A stretch of DNA of 34,456 nt from Nanobdellota archaeon (lineage in GTDB: Archaea; Nanobdellota; Nanobdellia; SCGC-AAA011-G17; GW2011-AR17). Both the position numbers and the translations under genes were made by a program. Below are positions 7,793 to 33,064 of the stretch, piece after piece (positions within the stretch are counted from its first letter, which is position 1; each line of letters begins with the position of its first letter). The stretch spans positions 1,144 through 35,599 of the forward strand of contig DUFP01000023.1 in the NCBI GenBank assembly GCA_013331795.1. The letters are read 5' to 3'. The notes beneath the pieces are model-generated. The model had not been told where the DNA came from, ran no database searches, and worked only from the letters and a program-made list of their open reading frames with translations.

Positions 7793-7875
7793 AGATAGAA
7801 GAAAAAAGAAAGTAGAGCTTTATAAGTGTTGTTGTGAGAAGATATTTAAAATAGATACTTTGTTTAAAGTATAAG

Positions 7876-7971
7876 CGAGTCTGGCGGGATTTGAACCCGC
7901 GACCTATAGCTTAGAAGGCTTTAGCGGGATCTTTCAACCCTATCGCTCTATCCAAGCTGAGCTACAGACTC
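7876..7971 (-). tRNA. tRNA-Arg(UCU) with a 21-nt intron in the anticodon stem
   Basis: Minus strand: acceptor GAGTCTG/CAGACTC, D stem GCTC/GAGC, T stem GCGGG/CCCGC with loop TTCAAAT. The anticodon loop CTTCTAA (7917-7911) gives anticodon UCU. The 3' stem strand GCTAT needs ATAGC, but the 5' strand is interrupted after ATA (7943-7941). Removing 21 nt (about 7940-7920) restores ATAGC exactly. The intron therefore sits inside the 5' anticodon stem (between positions 29/30 or 30/31), not at the canonical 37/38. Discriminator G; no CCA encoded. The intron contains a GGG/CCC helix, but a full bulge-helix-bulge is not obvious to me. Confidence 0.88.
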
Positions 7972-17038: not shown

Positions 17039-17100
17039 ACTAGGGTTAAATATTCTCTCACCCACAGATTTTTAAAGGTTTTTTGGCTCTTTTTTTGGCT

Positions 17101-19023
17101 ATGCAGTTCTCTGATCTCATTAAAAAATTGAAGGCATATGAAAAAAAGCCTGATTTTCCTTTAATCAAGAGAGCCTATGCCTTTGCAGAAAAAGCACATG
17201 AAGGACAGAGGAGAGCAACTGGAGAGGCCTATATTGAACATCCACTGCATGTTGCATGTATTCTTGCGGATTTGAAACTTGATGATGTTACTATTGCTGC
17301 AGCACTGCTTCATGATGTTGTAGAAGATACAGAATTCACTCAAAAAGACATTACAAATGAATTTGGAAAAGAAATAGCACAGATTGTTGAAGGGATGACA
17401 AAAATTAAAACTTTAAAGAACCTTTCCAGAGAGGATTATCATGCAGAAACTATTCGAAAAGTTATTCTTGCTTCTGTAAAAGATATTCGTATTATTTTAA
17501 TCAAACTTGCAGACAGATTGCATAATATGCGGACTATTAGTGTTTTTCGAGAGGAAAAAAGGCAGAGAATTGCCAGTGATGCTTTAGAAGTCTATGCACC
17601 TATTGCACACAAACTGGGTATCGCAAGTATCAAATGGGAAATGGAAGACCTTGCATTTGAACAGCTACACCCAGATATTTATGTTGATATAAATAAAAAA
17701 ATACAGCAATCCCACAAAGAACGAGAAAAAGAAATTGCAAAGATTAAACGTCTCCTCCAAGAGGAGTTACAAGGGACAAAAATTAGCTGTGATATTTCTG
17801 GAAGACCAAAACATATTTACAGTATTTATAGAAAAATGTATAAAAAAAATAAAAGTTTTGAAGAAATTTATGATCTGAGTGCATTACGAATTATTACAGA
17901 TACTGTACGACACTGTTATGAGCTTCTAGGAATTATTCACAATATTTGGACACCAATCCCTAAAGAATTTGATGATTATATTGCAACACCAAAATCAAAT
18001 ATGTATCAATCTTTACATACTGTGGTCATTGGACCTATGAATAAACCTGTAGAGATTCAAATCAGAACAGAAGAAATGCACGAAATTGCAGAGCAAGGTA
18101 TTGCTGCACACTGGAAATACAAAGGCCATGGCTCTGATAATGAATTTGATCAGAAATTGAAATGGATGATAGAAGTTAATGAACTACAGAAAGATTCTGA
18201 AGATGCAAAAGAATTCTTAAAAATGCTGCACATTGATTTTTTTGAAGATGAAATATTTACTTTTACGCCTAAAGGAAAAGTTATTGAACTTCCTAAAGGT
18301 GCAGGGATTTTAGATTTTGCATATGGAGTACACTCTGATCTTGGAGATAAATGCATCGCTGCAAAAGTAAATGGGCTTTTTGTTCCTCTACGAGCAACTT
18401 TACGAAATGGAGACAGAGTTGAGATTATCACTGCAAAAAATCAACATCCCTCGCGAGATTGGCTAAAAATTGTCAAGACTTCTAAAGCTGCATCTAAAAT
18501 TAAAAGATATATTACCCTCACACAAAAAGTTCCTGTACAAAGCTTCAAAAAAGAAGAAGAAATAAAAAAAGAATTAGAAGCATGGATTATTGATGTAGAT
18601 AGTATGTCAAAGCCAGAAATTTTACTTTCTAAATGTTGTAGGCCTACTCCAGGGGATAAGATTATTGGATTCTCACGAAGCATTGGGAAAGTGAATATCC
18701 ATAGAAATGACTGTAGTGCTGTAAAAAGAAGAGTCGCTGATAGAAAAAAAGTTACTGTCCGATGGGTAGATAGCATTGGAAGAACTGTTGAAATCAAAGT
18801 TGATGCAGAAAATCGCACAGGACTCTTTGCAGAGATTCTCAATACACTCATTGCACAAAGTACTTCCATTAAGCATGCACATGCAAAAGCTATGGGTGAC
18901 CAATTTGTTGAATGCAGCTTTGAAATGGAAACAGCAGGTCTTGAGCATCTGCAGGATTTGATTAAACGATTACGAAGAATTTCTGGTGTAAGGCATGTGT
19001 TTATTGGAAATATGAGCTCTTAA
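17101..19023 (+). CDS. Long RelA/SpoT homolog (bifunctional (p)ppGpp synthetase/hydrolase)
   Basis: This ~640-residue protein makes and degrades the alarmone (p)ppGpp. Domain order is HD hydrolase (IEHPLHVACILADL, ALLHDVVEDT, LADRLHNMRT), then synthetase (RPKHIYSIYRKM, YDLSALRII, YQSLHTVVIGP, EIQIRT, GIAAHWKYK), then TGS (EIFTFTPKGKVIELPKG), a helical/zinc-finger-like CCRP segment (SKCCRPTPGD) and a C-terminal ACT domain. All catalytic residues I can check are intact on both sides, so it should be bifunctional, as in bacterial Rel. Start chosen at 17101, six codons inside the longest reading, because a TATA-like ATTTTTAAAG lies about 25-30 nt upstream. RSH proteins are uncommon in archaea, so transfer from bacteria is likely. 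Confidence 0.94.
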   Translation: MQFSDLIKKLKAYEKKPDFPLIKRAYAFAEKAHEGQRRATGEAYIEHPLHVACILADLKLDDVTIAAALLHDVVEDTEFTQKDITNEFGKEIAQIVEGMTKIKTLKNLSREDYHAETIRKVILASVKDIRIILIKLADRLHNMRTISVFREEKRQRIASDALEVYAPIAHKLGIASIKWEMEDLAFEQLHPDIYVDINKKIQQSHKEREKEIAKIKRLLQEELQGTKISCDISGRPKHIYSIYRKMYKKNKSFEEIYDLSALRIITDTVRHCYELLGIIHNIWTPIPKEFDDYIATPKSNMYQSLHTVVIGPMNKPVEIQIRTEEMHEIAEQGIAAHWKYKGHGSDNEFDQKLKWMIEVNELQKDSEDAKEFLKMLHIDFFEDEIFTFTPKGKVIELPKGAGILDFAYGVHSDLGDKCIAAKVNGLFVPLRATLRNGDRVEIITAKNQHPSRDWLKIVKTSKAASKIKRYITLTQKVPVQSFKKEEEIKKELEAWIIDVDSMSKPEILLSKCCRPTPGDKIIGFSRSIGKVNIHRNDCSAVKRRVADRKKVTVRWVDSIGRTVEIKVDAENRTGLFAEILNTLIAQSTSIKHAHAKAMGDQFVECSFEMETAGLEHLQDLIKRLRRISGVRHVFIGNMSS

Positions 19024-22183: not shown

Positions 22184-22634
22184 AATTTTCTCTCTTCTCT
22201 AAATCTAAATTATATCTTTGTATGTATCTTTTTCTATCTGTTTCCCAACGTTCTTTATTTCTTTGTGCAAGCTCTTCTTCCGTTTCTGCTTTTCCTTCAG
22301 ATTTTCTTGGTTTGAGAAAAATTCTTCGTGCACCTTCCTCATAAGAAACATCTAAAAATACTTTTATTGCATCAGGGATAAAATGGAATGCTAATCTACT
22401 ATCAAAAATAAAATTATCCTCTGTTTTTCCAATCTTTTCAGTTCTTTCATCTACTTTTCTATCAATCTCTTCTGGTGTCACAGAAGAAAAAGCTTCTATT
22501 GTATAGCCCATCCCCATAGCTATTTCTCTCATCATATCACCAGTAGAATAATGCTTTAGATGATATTTCTCTGCTAGGAATTTTGCAATGGTAGATTTTC
22601 CAGAACCAGCACGACCTCCTAAAGTAATTTTCAT
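22095..22634 (-). CDS. cmk: Archaeal cytidylate kinase
   Basis: This 179-residue protein phosphorylates (d)CMP with ATP. It has the P-loop GRAGSGKST (about 7-15), the substrate-binding STGDMMREIA segment, the DSRLAFHFIPDAIKVFLDV strand, and a lid region with RNKERWETDRKRY. Start chosen at 22634, where the ATG overlaps the aIF2 gamma stop (ATGA); four extra codons upstream are unlikely. Cmk near translation genes is a common archaeal arrangement. The 3' end overlaps the ogg gene by 89 nt. Confidence 0.92.
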   Translation of the reverse strand: MKITLGGRAGSGKSTIAKFLAEKYHLKHYSTGDMMREIAMGMGYTIEAFSSVTPEEIDRKVDERTEKIGKTEDNFIFDSRLAFHFIPDAIKVFLDVSYEEGARRIFLKPRKSEGKAETEEELAQRNKERWETDRKRYIQRYNLDLEKRENYDAYIDTTKQTMEEVIREVERIISSLRKA

Positions 22635-23923
22635 TTTATGGTACAATATCCGATTAATCGGAATCTATGACCTACAAGACGAGAAACTGTAATTTTATCT
22701 GTTTTTTCTGCACATACTGGAAGTTTTAATTTTACTGTAAAATAATTTTTAGACAAATCTGTTACTAGACCTACTGTTGTTGAAGAGTTCACATTGAGCA
22801 TAAGATTTTCTCCTTTCTTAATTGGCTCAACTTGTAATTCTTTCTCTGAACCCACAACACGATCAAGCAAATGTGGGACTAGTTGTAATTCTAGATATAC
22901 TTCTGGAAGATGCCCTGGATGACCAACAACATTTCCTGTCAAGGAATCTGATTTTACCAATGCTGGATCAAGTGCAGTAAGCAATGCAATAGATGCACCA
23001 GGATGCGCTTCTTTAAGATCATCATTTCCTGTTCTTATTTTTACAATAGAAGTATTTAGGGAAAGCCAAGAAACTTTTCCTTCTCTTTCTACCTTTCTTC
23101 CTGGGCGAATTTCAATTGCATCTCCTTCTTTGAAAATACCCTGCTTTAATGCACCACCAAGGACTCCACCAACAATCTTTGTATAGTGCACTCCAGGTTT
23201 ATTAATATCAAAACTTCGAGCAATAAACATGATTGGAGATTTTTTGAGATCTCTTTTTGGTGTGAGAAATTGTTCTTCTATTGTTTGAATAAGAAGATCA
23301 ATGTTTACATTATTTTTTGCGGATATAGGGATAATAGGAGCATTTTCTGCTATAGAGCCTTTCACAAAAGCTTTAATCTGCTTGTAATTTTCTAGTGCAT
23401 CCTCTTCTGCAACAAGATCAATTTTATTTTGTACAATGATAATATTTTTTATACCTGAGATTTGTAAGGCCATAAGATGTTCTTTTGTTTGTGGCTGTGG
23501 ACAGAGCTCATCTGCTGCAACTAATAACAAAGCTGCATCCATGATTGCAGAGCCTGAAAGCATTGTTGCCATCAGTGTTTCGTGCCCAGGTGCATCTACA
23601 AAAGAGACTGCACGAAGAAGCTTTGCTTTGCCTTCACAGTTTGCACATTTTTCTGTTGTCCCATATGCCTGCGAAGCTTTACATTTTTCACATTTGTAGA
23701 AGGATGCATTTGCATAGCCTAGACGAATCGTAATTCCTCTCTTAACTTCTTCAGAATGCGTATCTGTCCATTTTCCAGAGAATCTTTCTGTTATGGTTGT
23801 CTTTCCATGGTCAACATGGCCTACCAAACCAATGCTTATCTCTGGCTGTCGGTGCTCCTGCTCTTTTATTTCTTTCTTTTCTTGTTTTCCCTCAGGAGTT
23901 TTTGCTTTTGCCTTTAGCGCCAT
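22631..23923 (-). CDS. Translation initiation factor aIF2 gamma subunit
   Basis: This 430-residue GTPase carries initiator Met-tRNA to the archaeal small subunit. It has G1 GHVDHGKTT, switch I region RGITIRLGYA, the zinc knuckle CEKC...CANC (about residues 77-99), G3 DAPGHE, G4 NKID, G5 SAK, then the two beta-barrel domains. All motifs are intact and length is normal (410-430). An N-terminal ~25-residue Lys/Glu-rich extension precedes the P-loop. Alpha and beta subunits are not in the window. It heads the aIF2 gamma-cmk-ogg run. Confidence 0.97.
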   Translation of the reverse strand: MALKAKAKTPEGKQEKKEIKEQEHRQPEISIGLVGHVDHGKTTITERFSGKWTDTHSEEVKRGITIRLGYANASFYKCEKCKASQAYGTTEKCANCEGKAKLLRAVSFVDAPGHETLMATMLSGSAIMDAALLLVAADELCPQPQTKEHLMALQISGIKNIIIVQNKIDLVAEEDALENYKQIKAFVKGSIAENAPIIPISAKNNVNIDLLIQTIEEQFLTPKRDLKKSPIMFIARSFDINKPGVHYTKIVGGVLGGALKQGIFKEGDAIEIRPGRKVEREGKVSWLSLNTSIVKIRTGNDDLKEAHPGASIALLTALDPALVKSDSLTGNVVGHPGHLPEVYLELQLVPHLLDRVVGSEKELQVEPIKKGENLMLNVNSSTTVGLVTDLSKNYFTVKLKLPVCAEKTDKITVSRLVGHRFRLIGYCTIK

Positions 23924-24684: not shown

Positions 24685-25071
24685 CTATTCTGCCTTTGCA
24701 TCTTTTCCAAAGATGTCATCCAAAGGTTTTGGTCCGTATTTTTTGACAGAGAGATTGAGTTGCGCTGTTTTTATTGTTACTTGATTTCCACACACAGTTT
24801 TTCTTTTTTTCATACCTTTTCTGTCAATTTTTACCCCTACTCCAGAGCCAAGCAATGCCTTTTTCCTGATAGGACCTTCAATGTCATTGCGCATAGGAAA
24901 ACCAGCAAAATCACTACCACCACGAATTTGTAATTCATAGCCTTCAAGACCTAAGAAATCTCCCACAATAGTCTCTCCGATTCTTTTCCCTACAAGACTT
25001 TCGTCTTCTAGAGCTTTCTGGTAGCTTTTTCCTGTTTTTGTGTCATTTATGACAAATCGTAGTTCAGCCAT
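24685..25071 (-). CDS. rps6e: Ribosomal protein eS6 (S6e)
   Basis: This 128-residue protein of the small ribosomal subunit shows the archaeal eS6 signatures: FVINDTKTGKSYQKAL, GETIVGDFLGLEGYELQIRGGSDFAGFPMR, and the K-R basic stretch KGMKKRKTVCG. Length is normal for archaea (120-130). Three residues into the C-terminal extension, it ends in a short acidic/Lys tail. Together with aIF2 gamma (24 kb) and aIF5B (33 kb), it places the conjugation operon inside a translation neighbourhood. Confidence 0.97.
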   Translation of the reverse strand: MAELRFVINDTKTGKSYQKALEDESLVGKRIGETIVGDFLGLEGYELQIRGGSDFAGFPMRNDIEGPIRKKALLGSGVGVKIDRKGMKKRKTVCGNQVTIKTAQLNLSVKKYGPKPLDDIFGKDAKAE

Positions 25072-25149: not shown

Positions 25150-25178
25150 GAGAGCATCTCTCCTCTGGAAAAAAGAGG
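25150..25178 (-). terminator. Two overlapping hairpins after the conjugation operon
   Basis: Downstream of the last operon stop (25192) on the minus strand come hairpin CCTCT/AGAGG (25174-25178 with 25162-25166) and then GAGAG-ATG-CTCTC (25158-25162 with 25150-25154). They share one base, so they are alternatives. They could mark the transcript 3' end; no long U-run follows, so this is weak. Confidence 0.3.
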
Positions 25179-25191
25179 GTTTACTTTGTTA

Positions 25192-26718
25192 TTATTTGTT
25201 ATGTACCATATCCCAAAAGAGAAACCAATGAGGATTTGTTTTTAGTTCTTGGGCTTTATGCACTCCAGTATGATCTTCTTTTGAAGTTTCCACAATGAAA
25301 TCACAATAGGTATTTGCTTTTGCATATTGTTTCATAGTACTATACATTGCTGCAGTAGAAAGGAGCATTGCATTTCTTTGTTTTTCATTTTCTGTATATC
25401 CAGCAACTGCTTTATATCTCTCAATTGTTTCTTCAAAATCCACTGGGATTCTCTTCCCTCTTCTGAATTCTGTTTTCTTCTCTCCAAGTAAAATAGCGAA
25501 ATTTGCATCTGCATACTGCTCAGGAATCGTTGTATCCCTTGCAACTTTCTCATAATAATCCTTTCCAAGAGCAGAATATGCTCCATTTAGATCCCCTAAA
25601 AGAGATGCAGCATCTACAGCAGTTGTGTCAGTATGAGTACTCACATCTGTTAACCAGGCTTCTGTTTCTCTGTTTGCAAGAAAAGCATCTCCTGTTTCTT
25701 GGAAAACAGCTTTGTATATATTATCATATACTCTTGATAAGGTTATTCTAGTAATATAATAAGGAATTTTTCTTCCTTCTTCTACTGCTTCTTGTTCAAG
25801 AATTATACTTGCATCATCACTGTCAACAACTTCTTTTACTTCTTGAAGAAGATCTGCAAGTTTAAATTTTGCTTTTACAGCAATGAAATCTCCTTTATAG
25901 AACTTGATAAATTCTTCAAGCGAATGTATTTTTTGGGCAATAACATTAGGATTCATTTTTTCCTGAGGCAATGTTTTTATTGAAGCCATATTAAACAATT
26001 TTACTTCATCTGTTTGTAGTTGAGAATATATTTCTCTTGAACAGATCTCTGCAAGCTCTACCTGCGCACTTAGATCTCTATTCTCAAAATTTCTATCTGC
26101 TATTCGCCAGGCATAAAATTGTTTTTCTTTTTCAGGATTTTTGAGCTCTTCCCGTACAGAGGAAAAATTTTCCTTGTTTTGGTGTAGCTTTGCAGATTCT
26201 ATCAAGGGTGCATCATTTATATTTTTGAAATACGCATGTGCAAATCCTGCTGTTGCAATGAATGTACCGAATATTGCTAATCTCCCATAATATTGTTCAC
26301 TGGAAAAAGCACGATACGGCAACATCCTTGATTGGATTACAGCTTTTTGTCTTTTTCTTATTTCTTTTGTTAGCGTGCTAAATGCTTTCTTCTTTTGTCT
26401 TTTATATTCTTTTTTTGGTAATGCATCACTTAAAATTAAAGCAGTTTGTGTGATGATAGTGGAGAGATTTTCTCCTTCTTGTAGAAGGTTTTGTATCTCT
26501 TTCATATTTTCTGTATCATTTCTTCTTTCTAACTCCCCAAGATAACTATTCACTAAAAATACTTGTTCTACATAGGGATGAATATCTTCTTGTTTTGGAA
26601 TTATTTCTATATACTTATCTAAGATCTCTGGTATAATTCTTTGTGTATGCGCTTTGAGTATGAGAACGTCTCCAGGACTTAGTCGAGGATTTGCTAAAAT
26701 ATCTTCTAAAGTTTTCAT
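25192..26718 (-). CDS. Membrane-anchored helical-repeat protein of the conjugation operon
   Basis: This 508-residue protein is helical throughout, with one membrane segment at about residues 146-163. The positive stretch just before it (KRQKKKAFST, RKRQKAVIQ) suggests the N-terminal 145 residues are cytoplasmic and the C-terminal ~345 outside. The C-terminal part has paired amphipathic helices of TPR character (LLSTAAMYSTMKQYAKANTY, DLNGAYSALGKDYYEKVA), but I could not assign a domain with confidence. The ATG overlaps the E1-like stop (ATGA), so it is the last gene of the operon and made in step with it. It may be an adaptor, a membrane docking subunit or a conjugation target. No RING or HECT motif is visible. 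Confidence 0.82.
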   Translation of the reverse strand: MKTLEDILANPRLSPGDVLILKAHTQRIIPEILDKYIEIIPKQEDIHPYVEQVFLVNSYLGELERRNDTENMKEIQNLLQEGENLSTIITQTALILSDALPKKEYKRQKKKAFSTLTKEIRKRQKAVIQSRMLPYRAFSSEQYYGRLAIFGTFIATAGFAHAYFKNINDAPLIESAKLHQNKENFSSVREELKNPEKEKQFYAWRIADRNFENRDLSAQVELAEICSREIYSQLQTDEVKLFNMASIKTLPQEKMNPNVIAQKIHSLEEFIKFYKGDFIAVKAKFKLADLLQEVKEVVDSDDASIILEQEAVEEGRKIPYYITRITLSRVYDNIYKAVFQETGDAFLANRETEAWLTDVSTHTDTTAVDAASLLGDLNGAYSALGKDYYEKVARDTTIPEQYADANFAILLGEKKTEFRRGKRIPVDFEETIERYKAVAGYTENEKQRNAMLLSTAAMYSTMKQYAKANTYCDFIVETSKEDHTGVHKAQELKTNPHWFLFWDMVHNK

Positions 26719-28079
26719 TTTTCTTTTTCCGTATGATTACATATATTTGTTTTCTTAATCACTTGTGCTCTGCTTGCTTCAAATACATCATAGGCAATAT
26801 ACCCATTGATATGCTCTCCTGCTCCACTAAGATAGAGCACTGCTTCTCCGGCCATAAGAGCTGCACAAATTTTACTTGTACTTATAATACTTGGCTCTGG
26901 AACTGCATCACAGCTATCTCTCTTTTTTTCCTCTGCTGCAAAAAGAGAAAAACCAAAGAGGCAATCTGGACAAAGTGTTTTTCCAGGAATGGATAGGGAA
27001 GATTTTGCACTTCGAAAACTTGTTCCTCCATGCACCAAGGGCATTCCCATCTTATTGAGTATCAATCTTGCTTCAAAATTATCTAAACAGCTTACTATAA
27101 GTTCTGGAGAGAGACCTTTAATTTGTTCTGGAGTTATACATTCATATCCTTCTTCTTTTTCTTCTACAAGTTTTGCATTCAAAGCTCTTATTTTTGCCTT
27201 AGGTCTTATTACTCCTAATTTTTCAGATAATACCAGAGCTTTTGGTCTTCCTTGAGCATCATAATAAAAGATTTGTCGTGAAAGGTTAGAAGTACTAGGG
27301 ATATCATAGTCAATAATGTGTATGTCATCAGCTCCTTCAAGGAGCAAAGCAGTGAGGCAAGGTGTCGCTAATGCTCCTGCGCCTACACTGACTATAGATT
27401 TTCCAGATAGCTGTACTGTTGCATGAAAATCATTTTGCTTTTCAAATCTCTCCTTAGAGAAAAGATTATACCAAAACAGTGTTTTCAAAGTTTTGCTTTC
27501 CTCTGCAGCATAGGGCATACATGATTTTCTTGCTTCTTCCACCATCATTCCTCCAATAATCATACTTGGAATAATACCCTGTGATCCCTGGAGTTCTTGC
27601 ATCTCAGAAATATATTCTTGATTTTTTCCAGAAGCAAGTGCCCCACGATATTTTTCTGCAGAGCCATAAATAAGAATTTTCCTTTTTTCTTTTGCATATG
27701 CACAAAGCATTCCCTTCGTTTGAGGATCATTTGTTGTTTCAAAAAGAAGATCTGCTTTTTCTAGAAATATTTCTAAACTTTTTCTTCTTAGAGGCCAATC
27801 TAAAAAATCTATTTTTATTTCAGGATTCACTTTTTTTAAGAAGTCTACTGCAGAATCAGACATTGAATCTCTAGAGGTATTTGGATAATAGCCTTTTTTC
27901 TCCGCACTATTCTTTTTTTCACCAATAAATAAGATATCTCCCAAACCTGTTGCTACAAGATTTTCCAGCACTTGCTGGCCTAAAAGATCATCACCAATAA
28001 CTACAGCACTCATGCTTCCCCATTTTTTCTGATCCCAACCTAGAATCATTTCTTGGCGAGAGTATCTTCCTTCAGTCAT
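26715..28079 (-). CDS. Single-chain E1-like activating enzyme with two tandem ThiF-type units
   Basis: This 454-residue protein has two Rossmann units. Unit 1 (about 5-190) starts with RYSRQ and AVVIGDDLLGQQ; its nucleotide loop lacks the normal GxGxxG, so it looks inactive. Unit 2 (about 222-440) has SVGAGALATP (231-240), DYD (257-259), NLSRQ (265-269), K280, CLDNFEAR (331-338), CPDC (370, 373) and the crossover-loop cysteine C390 in DSCDAVPEPS, the expected thioester residue. A C-x-H pair at 447/449 may complete the zinc site. An inactive plus active pair in one chain is how eukaryotic Uba1-type E1s are built. I chose 28079 (GAGG upstream); 28109 adds ten codons. It overlaps both neighbours. 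Confidence 0.92.
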   Translation of the reverse strand: MTEGRYSRQEMILGWDQKKWGSMSAVVIGDDLLGQQVLENLVATGLGDILFIGEKKNSAEKKGYYPNTSRDSMSDSAVDFLKKVNPEIKIDFLDWPLRRKSLEIFLEKADLLFETTNDPQTKGMLCAYAKEKRKILIYGSAEKYRGALASGKNQEYISEMQELQGSQGIIPSMIIGGMMVEEARKSCMPYAAEESKTLKTLFWYNLFSKERFEKQNDFHATVQLSGKSIVSVGAGALATPCLTALLLEGADDIHIIDYDIPSTSNLSRQIFYYDAQGRPKALVLSEKLGVIRPKAKIRALNAKLVEEKEEGYECITPEQIKGLSPELIVSCLDNFEARLILNKMGMPLVHGGTSFRSAKSSLSIPGKTLCPDCLFGFSLFAAEEKKRDSCDAVPEPSIISTSKICAALMAGEAVLYLSGAGEHINGYIAYDVFEASRAQVIKKTNICNHTEKEK

Positions 28080-29040
28080 TGTTGTTTCCTCTTCTAAAAA
28101 GTTCTTCATAGCGAAGAGAGTTTGCCACTTTCATTTTGAGAGCTCTTTCTGCTACTTCTTTTTTTATTATGTCTCTTTCTTTTTCTTCTTCATTTGTATC
28201 TATAATTTCTAAGGATACTTGCCTTTCTCGAATTCTATCATCTGAAGTATTCAAATATGACCATTTTTTCCAGAAGAACCCAGCATAAGGATCTTTACAA
28301 ATATCTTGCTGGAATTCTTGCCCTAAATAATGCTCTGGAGCTTTTGCAATCTTTCTATCAATAAATTCTAAAATTTTATTTGCACCTTCAACTGCACTTA
28401 CCAGAATATTTGGTGATACTGAAGGATTCATAATAATACATCCAATATAAGAATAATATGTTGGGAGCATTGTACCAATAGAATCTATAATCTCTTTGAG
28501 ATCTTTTCTTTCTTTATCTTTCAACTTTATAACAAAGTTTATATGGCTCTTTCTTGAATGCAAGAAAAACTCACCTTCTTTTTCTTCAATGAAGAAATCA
28601 TCTATACTCCTCCTTTCTTCTTGAGCATAGATTTTGTAGTTTTCCTCTCCAATTTTATTTAAGAAGGCCCCACAACTATCTTTATCATTCACTACTGGAA
28701 ATCTTGGGCCTGATGGACGAAGTGCACCATAACAATGGTGGTGTATCCAGCTATTTAGGATTAAATTTTCTGCTCTCTTTGCTTCAATAATTACCGGAAA
28801 AAGAGGATCATGCACTTCCACTCCTTCTGCTGCACAGTGTTGAATAGGAAAATAGAGGTCTCTAATGATATGCTCTGGATCATCTTTGGCTCTAAATCCA
28901 TACATATAACTTTCTACAACACCTTTTTGCAAAACTGTTTCATCAATATATGCTTGTGCTGCATTATATGCTCTACGACTTATTTTCATCGTTGGAAAAA
29001 GAATTTCTACTGGGAATAATTTTCTGTCTACATCTATCAT
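28072..29040 (-). CDS. JAMM/MPN-like metalloprotease (candidate processing and deconjugating enzyme)
   Basis: This 322-residue protein has an N-terminal JAB1/MPN-like domain (about 14-135). The zinc/catalytic set can be read as Glu43 (VVESYMYGF), H100-x-H102 in WIHHHCYG, and S110 after exactly seven residues. The motif's Asp, normally three residues later, is displaced: D119 or D121 in NDKDSCGAF. So the loop carries an insertion of about 8 residues. JAMM enzymes cleave after Gly-Gly of ubiquitin-like proteins; here the obvious job is removal of the VY tail of the 122-aa protein and release of conjugates. The C-terminal ~190 residues are unrecognised. Start at 29040, overlapping the E2 stop (ATGA); 17 extra codons upstream are unlikely. 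Confidence 0.85.
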   Translation of the reverse strand: MIDVDRKLFPVEILFPTMKISRRAYNAAQAYIDETVLQKGVVESYMYGFRAKDDPEHIIRDLYFPIQHCAAEGVEVHDPLFPVIIEAKRAENLILNSWIHHHCYGALRPSGPRFPVVNDKDSCGAFLNKIGEENYKIYAQEERRSIDDFFIEEKEGEFFLHSRKSHINFVIKLKDKERKDLKEIIDSIGTMLPTYYSYIGCIIMNPSVSPNILVSAVEGANKILEFIDRKIAKAPEHYLGQEFQQDICKDPYAGFFWKKWSYLNTSDDRIRERQVSLEIIDTNEEEKERDIIKKEVAERALKMKVANSLRYEELFRRGNNND

Positions 29041-30302
29041 ATTTTTTCTCCTATAATAAAGTCCGTTTTCTTTGGTATAAAAGAAACCCATTGTTTATGA
29101 AATCGAGGATTATCAAGCCTATGTGGATTTCCCATGTTTGTCATGGTAATTAAAGCGAGAGGCCCATGTATGTCATCAAAAATATTGGTCATATTTGTGC
29201 CATAAAATAAAGTATGTCTATTGAGAGTAAACAAAGATGCTAGATTTTCCATCTGATCTGCAGTTTTTGCATTTTCATATTGCTCTTTGTAGCCTCTTAG
29301 ACAGACTTGACCGTAATTAGGATGACGTTCTGGATAGATAAGAGGGTGCTGTTCAGGAAGCGAATAGTATATAGGATAAAAAAGAAACTGCATATTTGTT
29401 GTTGCAAGGAGTTTTGTTTCTAATTCCGCTTGTTGAAATTGAATATAACATCTTACTCCTGGAACCTGGATATAATACTTTGGAATACACATTTTTATGT
29501 TGTATTGCCCTCCAATTGCTTCTTCAAATAAGAGCCCATACGAATGAAAATCTTCTTCTTCAAATCTTCTTTGAAGATAATGCCTTTGTTTTCTTGCAAT
29601 CTTCATCTCATCTCCTAAAGAAATACTTGAAGCATACCGTTTGAAAAAATTATTTATATACCTTTTTCTCATTGCAACACTTTTTTCTGGGGTAATTCCT
29701 GAAGGATAAATATCATATTCCTCCCCAAAGATTTGTATCCCTCCTTTACTTTTTATTTCTTTTTGAATTCTAAAAGCAATGCCATCCACAAAAAGAGTGT
29801 AATTAGTCTGTGTTGAATTTGCTTTGATAACTGTTTTTAGTCCTTTCATAAAATCTTTTCTTTTTTTTTCTTCAACAGGATCATATTCTTTTCCAAACTC
29901 TTCTTCTAAACGTTTTTTGTCTGGTACTTTAGATGGAGTGTAGGTGCTCATATCCAAATATTCTTTATATCCTATGTCCGCTTTTAATCTTCTAAACAGA
30001 TTTAAAATTGCTACAAGAGACCTATTTCCTAGGATATAGTCTGCATAAGTATTTTCAGGCATTGCCTCACCTAATGACTGTAAAAAATTATCTTCTATTT
30101 CCTTTTGATATTGCTGAAGATAGATTTCTATAATTTTTGTATAGCTACTTGTCTCCTCTAAAGCAAAAGGAATAGAATCAATACAAATACTTCCTGTTCT
30201 ATCCCTTGGAAATGCTTCTGTGCCTATATATATTTTATCTTTTAGAATAAGAACTATATGCTCTTTTTGGACTATATCTTCTAATGGAAAGGATGGAATC
30301 AT
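29037..30302 (-). CDS. E2-like (UBC-fold) conjugating enzyme with a large N-terminal domain
   Basis: This 421-residue protein has a UBC-like domain in its C-terminal half (about 235-370). Beta strands (YNIKMCIPKYY, VRCYIQFQQAEL) lead to FYPIYYSLPEQHP and then HPNYGQVCLRG, with H327-P-N and Cys334. This matches the E2 signature H-P-N...G-x-[VI]-C-L, with a shorter gap than in eukaryotic E2s (seven residues from His to Cys rather than about ten), as in several prokaryotic E2-like families. Residues 1-230 are unrecognised and end with the basic helix KRYASSISLGDEMKIARKQRH. It begins 23 bp after the ubiquitin-like gene and overlaps the JAMM gene. It would accept the activated tag from the tandem E1. 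Confidence 0.85.
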   Translation of the reverse strand: MIPSFPLEDIVQKEHIVLILKDKIYIGTEAFPRDRTGSICIDSIPFALEETSSYTKIIEIYLQQYQKEIEDNFLQSLGEAMPENTYADYILGNRSLVAILNLFRRLKADIGYKEYLDMSTYTPSKVPDKKRLEEEFGKEYDPVEEKKRKDFMKGLKTVIKANSTQTNYTLFVDGIAFRIQKEIKSKGGIQIFGEEYDIYPSGITPEKSVAMRKRYINNFFKRYASSISLGDEMKIARKQRHYLQRRFEEEDFHSYGLLFEEAIGGQYNIKMCIPKYYIQVPGVRCYIQFQQAELETKLLATTNMQFLFYPIYYSLPEQHPLIYPERHPNYGQVCLRGYKEQYENAKTADQMENLASLFTLNRHTLFYGTNMTNIFDDIHGPLALITMTNMGNPHRLDNPRFHKQWVSFIPKKTDFIIGEKI

Positions 30303-30325
30303 TTTCTAAAAAAGAAAATAAAAAA

Positions 30326-30694
30326 TTAATAGACGCCCCCACCATCTCTCTTTGTTACTCTTATTGTAAATGTTTTATATGGAGATTCTCCACTAACGGT
30401 CATCATGCTGTCCAAATAGTTTACTGCTTTATCTGTTTGGCGTGCAGGTTTTCCATTTACTTCTAGTGCATAATCTACTAAAACTCCAAACCTTTTTGCT
30501 TTTAGAATATTGGTGACATTTTTTGCAAGCTCTTCTTGTGAGCCTTCATATTCTTGTTGCAATGTTGAATCTATCAAATCTAAAAGAGTTAATTCTGCAA
30601 AGTCAACAGGGGCTTTTTGTTCCAGCAAACTTGTATCTCTTGTTAAAGCTGTTCCTAGTCTTATTCGTACATCATAATTTGTTTCTGCTATCAT
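30326..30694 (-). CDS. Candidate ubiquitin-like protein precursor ending in GGG-VY
   Basis: This 122-residue protein reads as an extended beta-grasp: strand YDVRIRLGT, strand ALTRDTS, helix LTLLDLIDSTLQQEY, a middle insert (50-75), strand DYALEVNGKPA and a last strand KTFTIRVTKR leading to the C terminus DGGGVY. The Gly118-Gly119-Gly120 run followed by two residues is how ubiquitin-family precursors look before a peptidase trims them; removing VY would expose Gly-Gly. Similarity to named families is too weak to see by eye, so the call rests on the tail plus its place before E2, JAMM and E1 genes. AAGGAG lies 8-9 nt before the ATG. It is longer than the 63-aa sulfur carrier, which has no tail. 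Confidence 0.82.
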   Translation of the reverse strand: MIAETNYDVRIRLGTALTRDTSLLEQKAPVDFAELTLLDLIDSTLQQEYEGSQEELAKNVTNILKAKRFGVLVDYALEVNGKPARQTDKAVNYLDSMMTVSGESPYKTFTIRVTKRDGGGVY

Positions 30695-30721
30695 TTTTAT
30701 TCTCCTTCTTAATAGATATAT

Positions 30722-30735
30722 TTCTCTTAAGAGAA
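30722..30735. promoter_or_regulatory. Perfect 14-bp palindrome between the membrane-protein and ubiquitin-like genes
   Basis: TTCTCTTAAGAGAA is its own reverse complement. It sits in the 53-bp gap upstream of the ubiquitin-like gene, just before a TATA-like ATATATC and the AAGGAG ribosome-binding site. It could be an operator for a homodimeric regulator at an internal promoter. Confidence 0.4.
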
Positions 30736-30747
30736 TTTAGCTTCTCT

Positions 30748-31350
30748 TTATAAGCTTTGTTGAGGGCTATTTTGTAGCTGCATTGCCTTACTGAGTATTG
30801 GATTTTGCAGAGAGATTTGCATTTTGTCTTTTGCTCTTTCAAAGATAGTTTTTTTGGGAGGATCTGGCATGTCAGCACGAGAAAGATATTCTGCAAAAGA
30901 CCATGGAATTATTGCTATTGAAGTTAATAACATAGAAGAGGCTATTGTTTTACTTAGAATGGAAGCTTCATCATCATTAAATGTTTTATATGCTACCCTC
31001 CCCAGGGTTATTGCTACTATTGGAAGAATTATACGTGCAATCTTCATTCCTTTTTTAGGATACCCTCTTGCTTCTTGTTTTATTTCTTCTTCTAATGGAC
31101 TTAAGATCTCTGGGTCTTTACTTCCATAATATGTTAGAAGACTAAAAACTAAATTCGGAATCATTATTGGACTTGCTACAATAAATCCATATGATGAAAG
31201 AAGATACGCAGACTTTACCAATTCTACATAGCTCTTCCCAGTACAGTGTTGATACATTTCTCCTAGAAATCCAGCATTGCGAATCATGAAATTATCATAA
31301 CGTGTGAGTAAAGTTCCATCCTCTGGAAAAAATCTGTCTTCTAAACTCAT
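30748..31350 (-). CDS. Polytopic membrane protein upstream of the conjugation genes
   Basis: This 200-residue protein has about four predicted membrane helices (around residues 40-75 as two, 103-122, 132-152) and soluble ends. The C-terminal tail is hydrophilic (PPKKTIFERAKDKMQ) and may be cytoplasmic. No family recognised. The ATG at 31350 starts 1 bp after the aIF5B stop, with GGGGTG just upstream; a GTG three codons earlier (31359) would overlap aIF5B. It is separated from the ubiquitin-like gene by 53 bp. It may belong to the conjugation operon (a second membrane subunit beside the 508-aa protein) or be a bystander. Confidence 0.75.
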   Translation of the reverse strand: MSLEDRFFPEDGTLLTRYDNFMIRNAGFLGEMYQHCTGKSYVELVKSAYLLSSYGFIVASPIMIPNLVFSLLTYYGSKDPEILSPLEEEIKQEARGYPKKGMKIARIILPIVAITLGRVAYKTFNDDEASILSKTIASSMLLTSIAIIPWSFAEYLSRADMPDPPKKTIFERAKDKMQISLQNPILSKAMQLQNSPQQSL

Positions 31351-31351
31351 C

Positions 31352-33064
31352 TTAGACACCCCAAAAATTATTTGCTTTTCTTTTTATTTCTGCAAGCTCT
31401 TTGAGAACATGTATCTCTTCTGGTAAAAGTAATTTTTTAAATTCTTTCAAACGACGAAAGTTTTCTTCATTCATATCAACATAATAGATCTCTTCTTCAT
31501 GAATTTGCCGACCAGCAGTAACTCCAGGGAGAGAAATTGCCACTTGTTTTCCTTTTTCTGCTACTGCAATAGATTCTCTTTCATACTCCACAGTTTTAAT
31601 ATGCCCTAGAAGATCCCCATTTTCTTTTATGAGGTCGGTATCAGGACGCAACGTTCCTTGCAATATTTCTACACCAATAACACAAGGATTATTCTGGCGA
31701 AAGGTACAGCCACGAAGATATTTGATTTTTGCAGGGCGAATGAGACCAAGTAATTCTTTTTGCTCTTCTTTTTTCTTTTCTGCTGCAATCCATGCTTCAA
31801 AATCATCTATTAACTGGTAAATAACATTATGTGAAATTATTTTTACTGCTTCTCCTTCGCCTTTGACATTGAAACACAGAATGACGCGTTCATAGGGATC
31901 TTCAGAAGATGCTGCTGCTGCAATATCTTTTTTTGTGACATTGCCTACTGTTGCTTTTTTTATTGCAATATGTTTTTCTTTCAACATAGAAATGAGTGCT
32001 TCTAAAGAGCCAAGGGTATCTGCTTTCACGATAATCCCTTGATTTTCTGTTTCTATAACTACTTCATCCACTTCTTCTTGGATTTTTTCACGTAACTCAG
32101 ATTCATTTTTGTCTATCACAAAGAGAGGCATACCAGAAACAACTTCTTTAATATCTACTGCAGAAATTTTAACCCCTGCTGCTGCATGTACTTCTTTTAC
32201 AGATATGAATTTTCCTTTTTCATCTGGTAAAAAAAGAGCTCGGACTTTTGTGACAATAGGCTCATTGAGACCACCAATGATAATGGGATCATTCACTTTT
32301 ATTTTTCCTTCATACACAATTGCATCTAAAGTTACGCCAAGACCTTGTTCTTCTTTCACTTCAAGAACAGTTGCTTTTGCAGGTGCATCTTGATTGCTTT
32401 TCAGATTTTCTTCAAGATACTTTTGTGCAAGGCCTATTAAGACCATGAGTACTTCTGGAATGCCCATGCCTGTTTTTGCAGAGCATGGAATCATTGCCAC
32501 TGTTTTTGTATAATCATCAATGCGGTCAAAACGATCTGCTTGAAAACCAAGCTCATAGCATTTTCCTACAATCTCATACAATTTTGTTTCTATTGCTGTT
32601 TGCACTTGTGGAGATTGCTCTGCGATTGCCTGCAAGACAAAGGAAGATTTTGCCGACCTAAAAGAAGATACAAGATCTACTTTATTTAATGCAATGACAA
32701 AAGGAGTTTTGTATTTTTTAAGAATAGAAATACATTCTTCGGTTTGGGGCTTGATACCTTCATTGATATCAATGACCAAGACTGCAATGTCTGCAAGGTT
32801 TCCACCACGCTTTCGCATATTGGAGAATGCTGCATGTCCAGGCGTATCAATGAAGACAAAGCCGGGGATAGAAATATTTTTGTTTTTTAATAAATCTCCA
32901 CAAATCTTTTGGATAGTTTTTACAGAAATTGCAGAAGAGGAAATCATCTGTGTAATTGCGCCAGGTTCTGATTCTACAACTGCAGTTCTTCGTATGCAAT
33001 CCAAAATTTTGGTTTTTCCATGGTCAACATTCCCCATTACTACTACTAAAGGTTGTCTGAGCAT
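31352..33064 (-). CDS. infB: Translation initiation factor aIF5B (IF2/eIF5B homolog)
   Basis: This 570-residue GTPase promotes subunit joining. It has G1 GNVDHGKTK (the usual His after Gly is Asn here), switch I AITQMISSS, G3 DTPGHAAF, G4 NKVD, and G5 SAKTG, then the beta-barrel (AKATVLEVKEEQGLGVTLD), the alpha/beta domain III and the C-terminal domain IV for tRNA contact (ILQGTLRPDTDL). Slightly short but complete. Its start has a TATA element at 33092-33104. It is the first gene of the minus-strand run that continues into the conjugation operon. Confidence 0.96.
   Translation of the reverse strand: MLRQPLVVVMGNVDHGKTKILDCIRRTAVVESEPGAITQMISSSAISVKTIQKICGDLLKNKNISIPGFVFIDTPGHAAFSNMRKRGGNLADIAVLVIDINEGIKPQTEECISILKKYKTPFVIALNKVDLVSSFRSAKSSFVLQAIAEQSPQVQTAIETKLYEIVGKCYELGFQADRFDRIDDYTKTVAMIPCSAKTGMGIPEVLMVLIGLAQKYLEENLKSNQDAPAKATVLEVKEEQGLGVTLDAIVYEGKIKVNDPIIIGGLNEPIVTKVRALFLPDEKGKFISVKEVHAAAGVKISAVDIKEVVSGMPLFVIDKNESELREKIQEEVDEVVIETENQGIIVKADTLGSLEALISMLKEKHIAIKKATVGNVTKKDIAAAASSEDPYERVILCFNVKGEGEAVKIISHNVIYQLIDDFEAWIAAEKKKEEQKELLGLIRPAKIKYLRGCTFRQNNPCVIGVEILQGTLRPDTDLIKENGDLLGHIKTVEYERESIAVAEKGKQVAISLPGVTAGRQIHEEEIYYVDMNEENFRRLKEFKKLLLPEEIHVLKELAEIKRKANNFWGV

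What the first reader, a model, noticed from the sequence alone, without database searches (positions are those of the whole stretch)
25192..30694. Complete ubiquitin-like conjugation operon in a DPANN-type archaeon
Seen: five same-strand genes, the last four overlapping by 4-8 nt, encode in order a 122-aa protein ending GGG-VY, an HPN...C E2-like protein, an HxHx7S JAMM-like protein, a tandem E1-like protein and a membrane-anchored helical protein. Known: E1-E2-JAB-tag sets exist in Asgard/Caldiarchaeum-type archaea and in bacterial defence-type operons (Bil and Bub systems). Inference: this is a stand-alone conjugation pathway separate from the tRNA sulfur relay at 9-16 kb. The gene order, the large N-terminal E2 domain, the JAMM insertion and the membrane subunit do not match the arrangements I know, and no E3 is visible.
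Basis: partly seen in the sequence, partly recalled or inferred. Interest (0 to 1): 0.93.

Follow-up and report, generated by a model that had tools for sequence, protein, structure and literature searches.

The report
Ubiquitin-like tagging operon in tiny archaea
This stretch of a very small archaeal (Woesearchaeota-type) genome carries what looks like a complete ubiquitin-style protein-tagging kit: a tag with a removable tail, the protease that would trim it, and the two enzymes that would attach it. The same linked gene set occurs in dozens of related archaea, a group in which I found no published report of such a system.

Summary
On the minus strand, 25192-30694 encodes, in order, a ubiquitin-like protein (Ubl, 122 aa, tail GGG-VY), an E2-like protein, a JAMM protease, a tandem E1 and a helical protein. 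The genome's relatives are Woesearchaeota/Nanoarchaeota. Among 371 phylum genomes, 44 (12%, 32 families) carry this tandem E1. Of 56 loci examined, 40 hold all four core genes and 50 hold E1+E2. Active residues are conserved: JAMM E/H/H/D in 47/47, E2 Cys in 45/45 (HP in about 41/45), the E1 ATP-site residues and Cys400 in 55/55. Every one of 38 Ubl genes carries a tail beyond its C-terminal glycine position. The Ubl model matches SUMO/ubiquitin folds. The E2's UBC fold is not proven; only its active-site segment aligns with known E2s, 0/100 shuffles. Its closest analogue is bacterial BilABCD (same gene order), but the E2 motif and E1 Cys domain differ, and there is no RING E3 as in Caldiarchaeum. 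The operon is patchy: a same-genus genome lacks it at this site. In six relatives the operon includes an AAA+ unfoldase (two Mpa/ARC-type), hinting at targeted unfolding or degradation. I rate it a new variant of a known kind.

The parts
30326..30694 (-). Ubl tag precursor, 122 aa. Conserved C-terminal Gly position G120 (codon 30335-30337), then tail V121-Y122 that would have to be removed.
   Evidence: near-invariant Gly column, tail of 1-27 aa in 38/38 relatives; AF2 pLDDT 80, Foldseek top hits SUMO/Ub/ISG15/Atg8.
29037..30302 (-). E2-like protein, 421 aa. H319-P320 (29343-29348) and catalytic Cys candidate C334 (29301-29303); large N-terminal region with two beta-hairpin-plus-helix repeats.
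   Evidence: C334 45/45, H319 41/45, P320 42/45; profile match to eukaryotic E2 active site, 0/100 shuffles; AF2 model pLDDT 72, fold search inconclusive.
28072..29040 (-). JAMM/MPN metalloprotease, 322 aa. E43, H100, H102, D119 = JAMM tetrad; 6-residue loop insertion before D119; Val116 where relatives have Ser.
   Evidence: tetrad invariant in 47/47; 30/47 relatives hit Pfam Prok-JAB and 6 JAB; profile hits Rpn11 E=1.7e-4.
26715..28109 (-). Tandem E1, 464 aa (454 aa if it starts at Met11, 28079). N-terminal inactive adenylation half with RYSRQ motif; C-terminal active half; catalytic Cys candidate C400 (26910-26912) in the crossover loop.
   Evidence: both halves MoeB-like (hhalign prob 99.4 and 99.6); ATP-site residues invariant in 56, C400 in 55/55 with data; PDB profile hits NEDD8 E1/UBA1.
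25192..26718 (-). Helical protein, 508 aa, one weak hydrophobic segment (about residues 146-165); 4-nt overlap with E1; function unknown, no homologue in related loci.
30748..31359 (-). Hydrophobic-segment protein, 203 aa (200 aa from ATG at 31350), between IF5B and the Ubl gene; lies inside the variable island and may belong to the operon.
   Evidence: hydropathy peaks near residues 58, 105 and 133.
25161..25174 (.). Left copy of 14-nt direct repeat TCCTCTGGAAAAAA bounding the island.
31319..31332 (.). Right copy of the 14-nt direct repeat; one copy only in same-genus genome G002, where IF5B and S6e are adjacent.

Best explanation
This is a ubiquitin-like conjugation system. Proposed cycle: the JAMM protease removes the VY tail of the Ubl after G120. 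The E1 active half adenylates that glycine, using an arginine finger from the inactive half, and takes the Ubl as a thioester on C400. The Ubl passes to C334 of the E2, which attaches it to target proteins without a dedicated RING E3; the E2's large N-terminal region or the helical protein may choose targets. The JAMM can also remove the Ubl again. In some relatives the tagged proteins are probably handed to a co-encoded AAA+ unfoldase; in this genome the candidates are the CDC48-like ATPase and the 20S proteasome. Shown here: gene set, conserved linkage, conserved active residues, Ubl fold by model. Inferred from known families: the chemistry. Speculative: targets and fate.
For: Gene set and overlaps. 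E1: Pfam ThiF 1.1e-43; both halves MoeB-like, RYSRQ in the inactive half, Cys400 aligned with the MoeB 'LTC' cysteine; closest PDB profiles are NEDD8/Ub E1s. JAMM: tetrad 47/47, Prok-JAB in 30/47, Rpn11 by profile. Ubl: all 38 have a tail beyond the conserved Gly position; Foldseek top hits SUMO/Ub. E2: Cys 45/45, HP about 41/45, in-register profile match with 0/100 shuffles. Linkage: 40/56 loci with all four, 50/56 E1+E2, 50/56 E1+JAB, and 26 of the 40 loci fetched after the E2/JAB/Ubl profiles were built have all four. Unfoldase link: 6 loci; proteasome and CDC48-like in own genome.
Against: No Pfam UBC hit for any of 45 E2s and no UBC hit for the whole E2 model, so the E2 assignment rests on a 26-35 column match and motif conservation. 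The window's own JAMM has no Pfam hit, a longer loop and Val for the usual Ser, so its activity is less certain than its relatives'. The loci used to show linkage were found through E1. No substrate, E3 or expression data. The unfoldase link comes from relatives, not from this window.
Confidence: 0.82

Rival explanations
1. It is a mobile anti-virus (defence) conjugation system analogous to bacterial Bil: same chemistry, but it tags viral or mobile-element proteins when the cell is attacked.
For: Patchy presence: missing from the six same-genus genomes searched, empty site in G002, several copies per genome in relatives, and own-family E1s fall in at least four places of the E1 tree. Gene order equals BilABCD (PMC11354881).
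Against: No PADLOC hit except generic E1-E2 models to E1; no relatives in viral, phage or plasmid collections beyond generic ThiF; no nuclease or other classic defence neighbour next to the window operon; the unfoldases point to proteostasis instead.
Confidence: 0.35
2. The Ubl is a sulfur carrier: E1 activates it to a thiocarboxylate for tRNA or metabolite sulfuration, and the JAMM only matures it.
For: ThiF/MoeB ancestry of E1; a PP-loop gene and a single ThiF gene lie at 8.7-16 kb; relatives L034/L038 have class-V aminotransferase (cysteine-desulfurase-like) and radical-SAM genes in the cluster.
Against: An E2-like protein with invariant Cys is linked in 50/56 loci; no rhodanese or desulfurase in the window operon; an asymmetric IAD-AAD E1 is typical of conjugation E1s; the window has a separate ThiF E1.
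Confidence: 0.07
3. Atg8-like: the Ubl is attached to a membrane lipid or membrane protein, with the hydrophobic neighbours as anchors.
For: Hydrophobic-segment genes next to the Ubl here and in L032, L043-L045; LC3/Atg8 among the Foldseek hits.
Against: The neighbours are not detectably homologous to one another; SUMO/Ub hits rank higher; archaeal lipids lack phosphatidylethanolamine of the ester type used by Atg8 (general knowledge).
Confidence: 0.05
4. The '421-aa E2' is not a UBC-fold enzyme but another HP...Cys protein, so that the E1 passes the Ubl directly to targets.
For: No Pfam or Foldseek UBC hit; model confidence modest (pLDDT 72, pTM 0.50).
Against: In-register profile match to the E2 active site (0/100 shuffles, reversed control negative); some members read HPFVYDNGSIC, nearly UBE2D2's HPNINSNGSIC; predicted order helix, strands, HP, Cys, helices fits UBC.
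Confidence: 0.12

Closest known systems
Bacterial Bil systems (BilABCD)
   Same: Ubl, E2, JAMM and E1 genes named in the same order; Ubl precursor trimmed by the JAMM; E1 with fused inactive and active adenylation halves (PMC11354881).
   Different: BilB has a CEHH motif instead of HP before the Cys; BilD has an ~80-aa helical Cys domain; BilA has two Ub-like domains. Here: HP...C, crossover-loop Cys, one Ub-like domain.
Bub / type 6d bacterial Ubl operons
   Same: Ubl, JAB, E1, E2 plus a fast-diverging helical protein (row 6d in PMC1779556).
   Different: Row 6d E2 lacks the His before the Cys and has one after it; the primary Bub papers could not be read here.
Caldiarchaeum/Asgard Ub-E1-E2-RING operons
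   Same: Archaeal; pro-ubiquitin with a tail; JAMM (Rpn11-like) adjacent; [quoted passage not shown]
   Different: Those have RING E3s, recognisable ubiquitin and a UBL-domain E1; here none of these, and Ubl and E2 are unrecognisable by sequence.
SAMP/Urm1-UbaA systems of archaea
   Same: MoeB-type E1 chemistry, JAMM desampylase.
   Different: No E2; single-domain homodimeric E1.
Mycobacterial Mpa/ARC proteasomal ATPase (only in relatives L079, L082)
   Same: OB + AAA proteasomal ATPase encoded beside a tag gene.
   Different: Tag here is an E1/E2-type Ubl, not Pup; C-terminus of the L079/L082 ATPases shows no obvious GQYL-type motif.

Membership tests
E1/E2/Ubl conjugation system (general) | E1 with full adenylation site and a conserved catalytic Cys | tested here: met
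E1/E2/Ubl conjugation system (general) | Beta-grasp Ubl ending in Gly (after trimming) | tested here: met
   Foldseek to SUMO/Ub (best E=1.5e-3, prob 1.00, TM 0.40/0.56); conserved Gly position and tails.
E1/E2/Ubl conjugation system (general) | E2 with UBC fold and catalytic Cys | tested here: inconclusive
   Cys and HP conserved, active-site profile match; fold not confirmed.
JAMM/MPN+ protease | E, HxH, D tetrad | tested here: met
   47/47 incl. window; the usual Ser is Val116 in the window.
Bil (BilABCD) | Gene order Ubl-E2-JAMM-E1 | tested here: met
   order from PMC11354881.
Bil (BilABCD) | E2 CEHH motif (Cys, Glu+6, His+8, His+13) | tested here: not met
   Window: C334, E340, Y342, T347; HP precedes the Cys instead.
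Bil (BilABCD) | E1 helical Cys domain of about 80 aa | tested here: not met
   15 residues between C384 and C400.
Bil (BilABCD) | Ubl with two Ub-like domains | tested here: not met
   122 aa, one domain in the model.
Caldiarchaeum/Asgard Ub system | RING E3 in the operon | tested here: not met
   0 RING-like motifs in 795 ORFs of the loci.
Caldiarchaeum/Asgard Ub system | Pro-Ub with tail plus JAMM that trims it | tested here: met
   By sequence only.
Caldiarchaeum/Asgard Ub system | E1 with C-terminal UBL domain | tested here: not met
   E1 ends after the active half.
CBASS Cap2/Cap3-type | E2 and E1 fused in one protein | tested here: not met
   Separate genes; PADLOC E1-E2 models match only the E1 part.
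Bub (bacterial ubiquitination-like) | Family-defining sequence features | not testable with these tools
   Primary papers not held.
Canonical eukaryotic E1 (UBA1-type) | IAD-AAD pseudo-dimer with the Arg finger in the IAD | tested here: met
Canonical eukaryotic E1 (UBA1-type) | SCCH and UFD domains | tested here: not met
   Length and alignment.
SAMP/UbaA | Single-domain E1, no E2 | tested here: not met
   Tandem E1 with linked E2-like gene.

The most novel reading that the evidence does not exclude
A DPANN-wide, previously undescribed ubiquitin-like system, with its own E2 family and a pseudo-dimeric E1 that keeps a MoeB/UBA5-style crossover-loop cysteine, tags proteins for AAA+ unfoldases (Mpa/ARC-like or ClpX-like) and the proteasome: a ubiquitin-proteasome-like pathway evolved without RING E3s in minimal archaea.
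Probability: 0.3. Interest if true: 0.88.

Novelty: new variant of a known kind. Interest (0 to 1): 0.74.

Why it matters
Complete E1-E2-JAMM-Ubl operons were known from bacteria and from Asgard/Caldiarchaeum archaea; no paper found here reports one in DPANN archaea. A set present in about 12% of sampled genomes of one reduced-genome phylum, with E2 and Ubl families invisible to Pfam, widens the range of ubiquitin-like systems. Its E1 combines a eukaryote-like pseudo-dimer with a bacterial-style catalytic cysteine. The AAA+ unfoldase neighbours make a concrete, testable link between Ubl tagging and unfolding or proteolysis outside eukaryotes.

Tried and rejected
Pfam, NCBIfam and PADLOC found only the E1 in the window. 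Whole-model Foldseek of the E2 gave unrelated low-probability hits. Sequence search of PDB with the E2 profile gave nothing. Profile comparison of the Ubl family with human ubiquitin failed; the structural match is the evidence. Viral, phage and plasmid searches found only generic ThiF proteins. Attempts to link the 508-aa and 203-aa proteins to accessory proteins of other loci failed. Papers on Bil and Bub structures were not held.
Full report
Setting. The window is contig 8 of a 975-kb, 89.7%-complete genome. Related loci in named records belong to 'Candidatus Woesearchaeota' and 'Nanoarchaeota', so the DPANN label is right. IF5B (31352-33064), S6e (24685-25071) and eIF2-gamma (22631-23923) flank the operon (names by my reading of the sequences).

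Observation. Five minus-strand ORFs lie at the stated coordinates. E2/JAMM and E1/508-aa overlap by 4 nt. JAMM/E1 overlap by 8 nt if E1 starts at Met11, which fits the conserved start of the alignment at RYSRQ. The Ubl stop is 23 nt before the E2 start. Only E1 is recognised by Pfam.

Relatives. An E1 search found full-length tandem E1s at roughly 22-34% identity in other genomes of the same family, order and class. A profile of them hit 44 of 371 genomes of the phylum with strong matches, from 32 families, some with 2-4 copies (my count from the listing). I fetched 55 loci. With profiles of the four families, 40 of 56 loci hold all four genes, 50 hold E1+E2, 50 hold E1+JAMM and 46 hold E1+Ubl. 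Some Ubl genes were assigned by position. The E2, JAMM and Ubl profiles came from the first 16 loci; of the 40 loci fetched afterwards, 26 have all four. The usual order is Ubl-E2-JAMM-E1, with Ubl-E2-E1-JAMM and Ubl-JAMM-E2-E1 variants. Several loci are cut by contig ends.

E1. The N-terminal half keeps the RYxRQ motif (the arginine finger of the MoeB/UBA family) but not the ATP-site residues. The C-terminal half has invariant G243, G245, D267, D269, N275, R278, K290 and D343. C400 is present in all 55 rows that have the column and aligns with the MoeB 'LTC' cysteine, in the loop that carries the catalytic Cys in ThiF/UBA4/UBA5-type E1s (the last comparison is from general knowledge). There is no room for a separate Cys domain. 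Profile searches of PDB rank NEDD8 and ubiquitin E1s first. So the E1 is a pseudo-dimer like eukaryotic E1s and Bil's BilD, with a crossover-loop Cys.

JAMM. E43, H100, H102 and D119 are invariant in 47 of 47. The spacing from H102 to D119 is the longest of the family (16 residues; usual 10), and Val116 replaces a Ser found in all 46 others, so activity in this organism is likely but less certain. 30 relatives match Prok-JAB and 6 match JAB; the profile finds Rpn11 (E=1.7e-4).

Ubl. 35 of 38 have Gly at the column of G120, the other three have Ala there next to a Gly, and all 38 carry 1-27 further residues. This is what a precursor trimmed by the linked protease would look like. The AF2 model (pLDDT 80, pTM 0.71) finds SUMO2 first (E=1.5e-3, probability 1.00) and SUMO, ubiquitin, ISG15 and Atg8 through the list. 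The first 30 residues are modelled poorly.

E2. C334 is invariant in 45; H319 and P320 are near-invariant. Some members are almost textbook: HPFVYDNGSIC versus HPNINSNGSIC of UBE2D2. The predicted order is helix, strands, HP, Cys, helices. But no member hits a Pfam UBC family and the whole-chain fold search found no E2. I treat the UBC fold as likely, not shown.

Island. Same-genus genome G002 has IF5B directly beside S6e and no tandem E1 anywhere found. The window segment between is bounded by a 14-nt direct repeat (25161 and 31319; none expected by chance). G002 has one copy and a 14-codon remnant matching the start of the 203-aa gene, so loss in G002 or gain as a unit in the window lineage are both possible. 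Other same-genus and same-family genomes have unrelated genes at this site. The E1 tree scatters own-family members over at least four places (quick tree, long window branch, weakly placed). The system is patchy and probably moves or is often lost.

Function clues. In L079 and L082 the gene directly upstream of the Ubl is an AAA ATPase with proteasomal OB domain (PF17758/PF16450), and the L079 ATPase aligns nearly full length to Mpa/ARC. In L031, L076, L112 and L114 a ClpX-like AAA+ ATPase is in the operon. The window's genome has 20S proteasome alpha and beta genes (58 of 60 genomes searched have proteasome genes, with or without the operon) and a two-domain CDC48-like ATPase. This supports, but does not prove, tagging for unfolding or degradation. 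Other clusters add Lrp/AsnC regulators, class-V aminotransferases with radical SAM proteins, or transglutaminase-like proteins, so outputs may differ between lineages. No RING-like protein was found.

Known systems. Bil (BilA Ubl, BilB E2, BilC JAMM, BilD E1; PMC11354881) has the same order and the same E1 halves, but its E2 CEHH motif, E1 Cys domain and two-domain Ubl are not met. The 2006 survey (PMC1779556, rows 6a-6e) describes bacterial sets, including one with a fast-diverging helical protein, whose E2-like protein lacks the classical His. Caldiarchaeum (PMC5654768, PMC6043591) has the trimmed pro-ubiquitin and JAMM but also RING E3s and recognisable ubiquitin. I found no paper on DPANN; most subscription-journal papers and preprints are not covered.

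Verdict. A real, conserved Ubl-conjugation operon. As a system it is a new variant of a known kind, with a new lineage, a new E2 family at the sequence level and an unusual E1 architecture. The functional output is open.

Noticed in passing
L079:10341-12270 and L082:9701-11649 (minus strand): Mpa/ARC/PAN-like OB-AAA ATPase gene directly upstream of the Ubl gene.
   Followed up: partly
L031, L076, L112, L114: ClpX-like AAA+ ATPase inside the Ubl operon.
   Followed up: partly
L034, L038: Ubl cluster with class-V aminotransferase (cysteine-desulfurase-like), radical SAM proteins and large helical proteins.
   Followed up: no
L037, L040, L041, L043, L044, L045: Lrp/AsnC-like HTH gene beside E1/JAMM, possible dedicated regulator.
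   Followed up: no
L040:1840-3534: JAMM protein fused to a C-terminal hydrophobic segment and LysM domain.
   Followed up: no
L031, L038, L079, L105: Repeated 'YYGG..GS.G.I..W..HPDE' module, perhaps SH3-like, in accessory proteins of the Ubl clusters; possible substrate receptor.
   Followed up: no
window 17083-19023 +: Full-length RelA/SpoT-type protein (HD, RelA_SpoT, TGS, ACT), unusual for an archaeon.
   Followed up: partly
window 7875-7971 -: ARAGORN reports a tRNA-like gene with a four-base anticodon gaaa, 97 nt; perhaps a tRNA with an intron or a misprediction.
   Followed up: no
window 25161-31332: Island between IF5B and S6e with a 14-nt direct repeat at both ends; single copy and 14-codon remnant of the 203-aa gene in G002.
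   Followed up: yes
genomes G274, G375, G236, G197, G218: Two to four divergent copies of the Ubl system in one small genome.
   Followed up: partly
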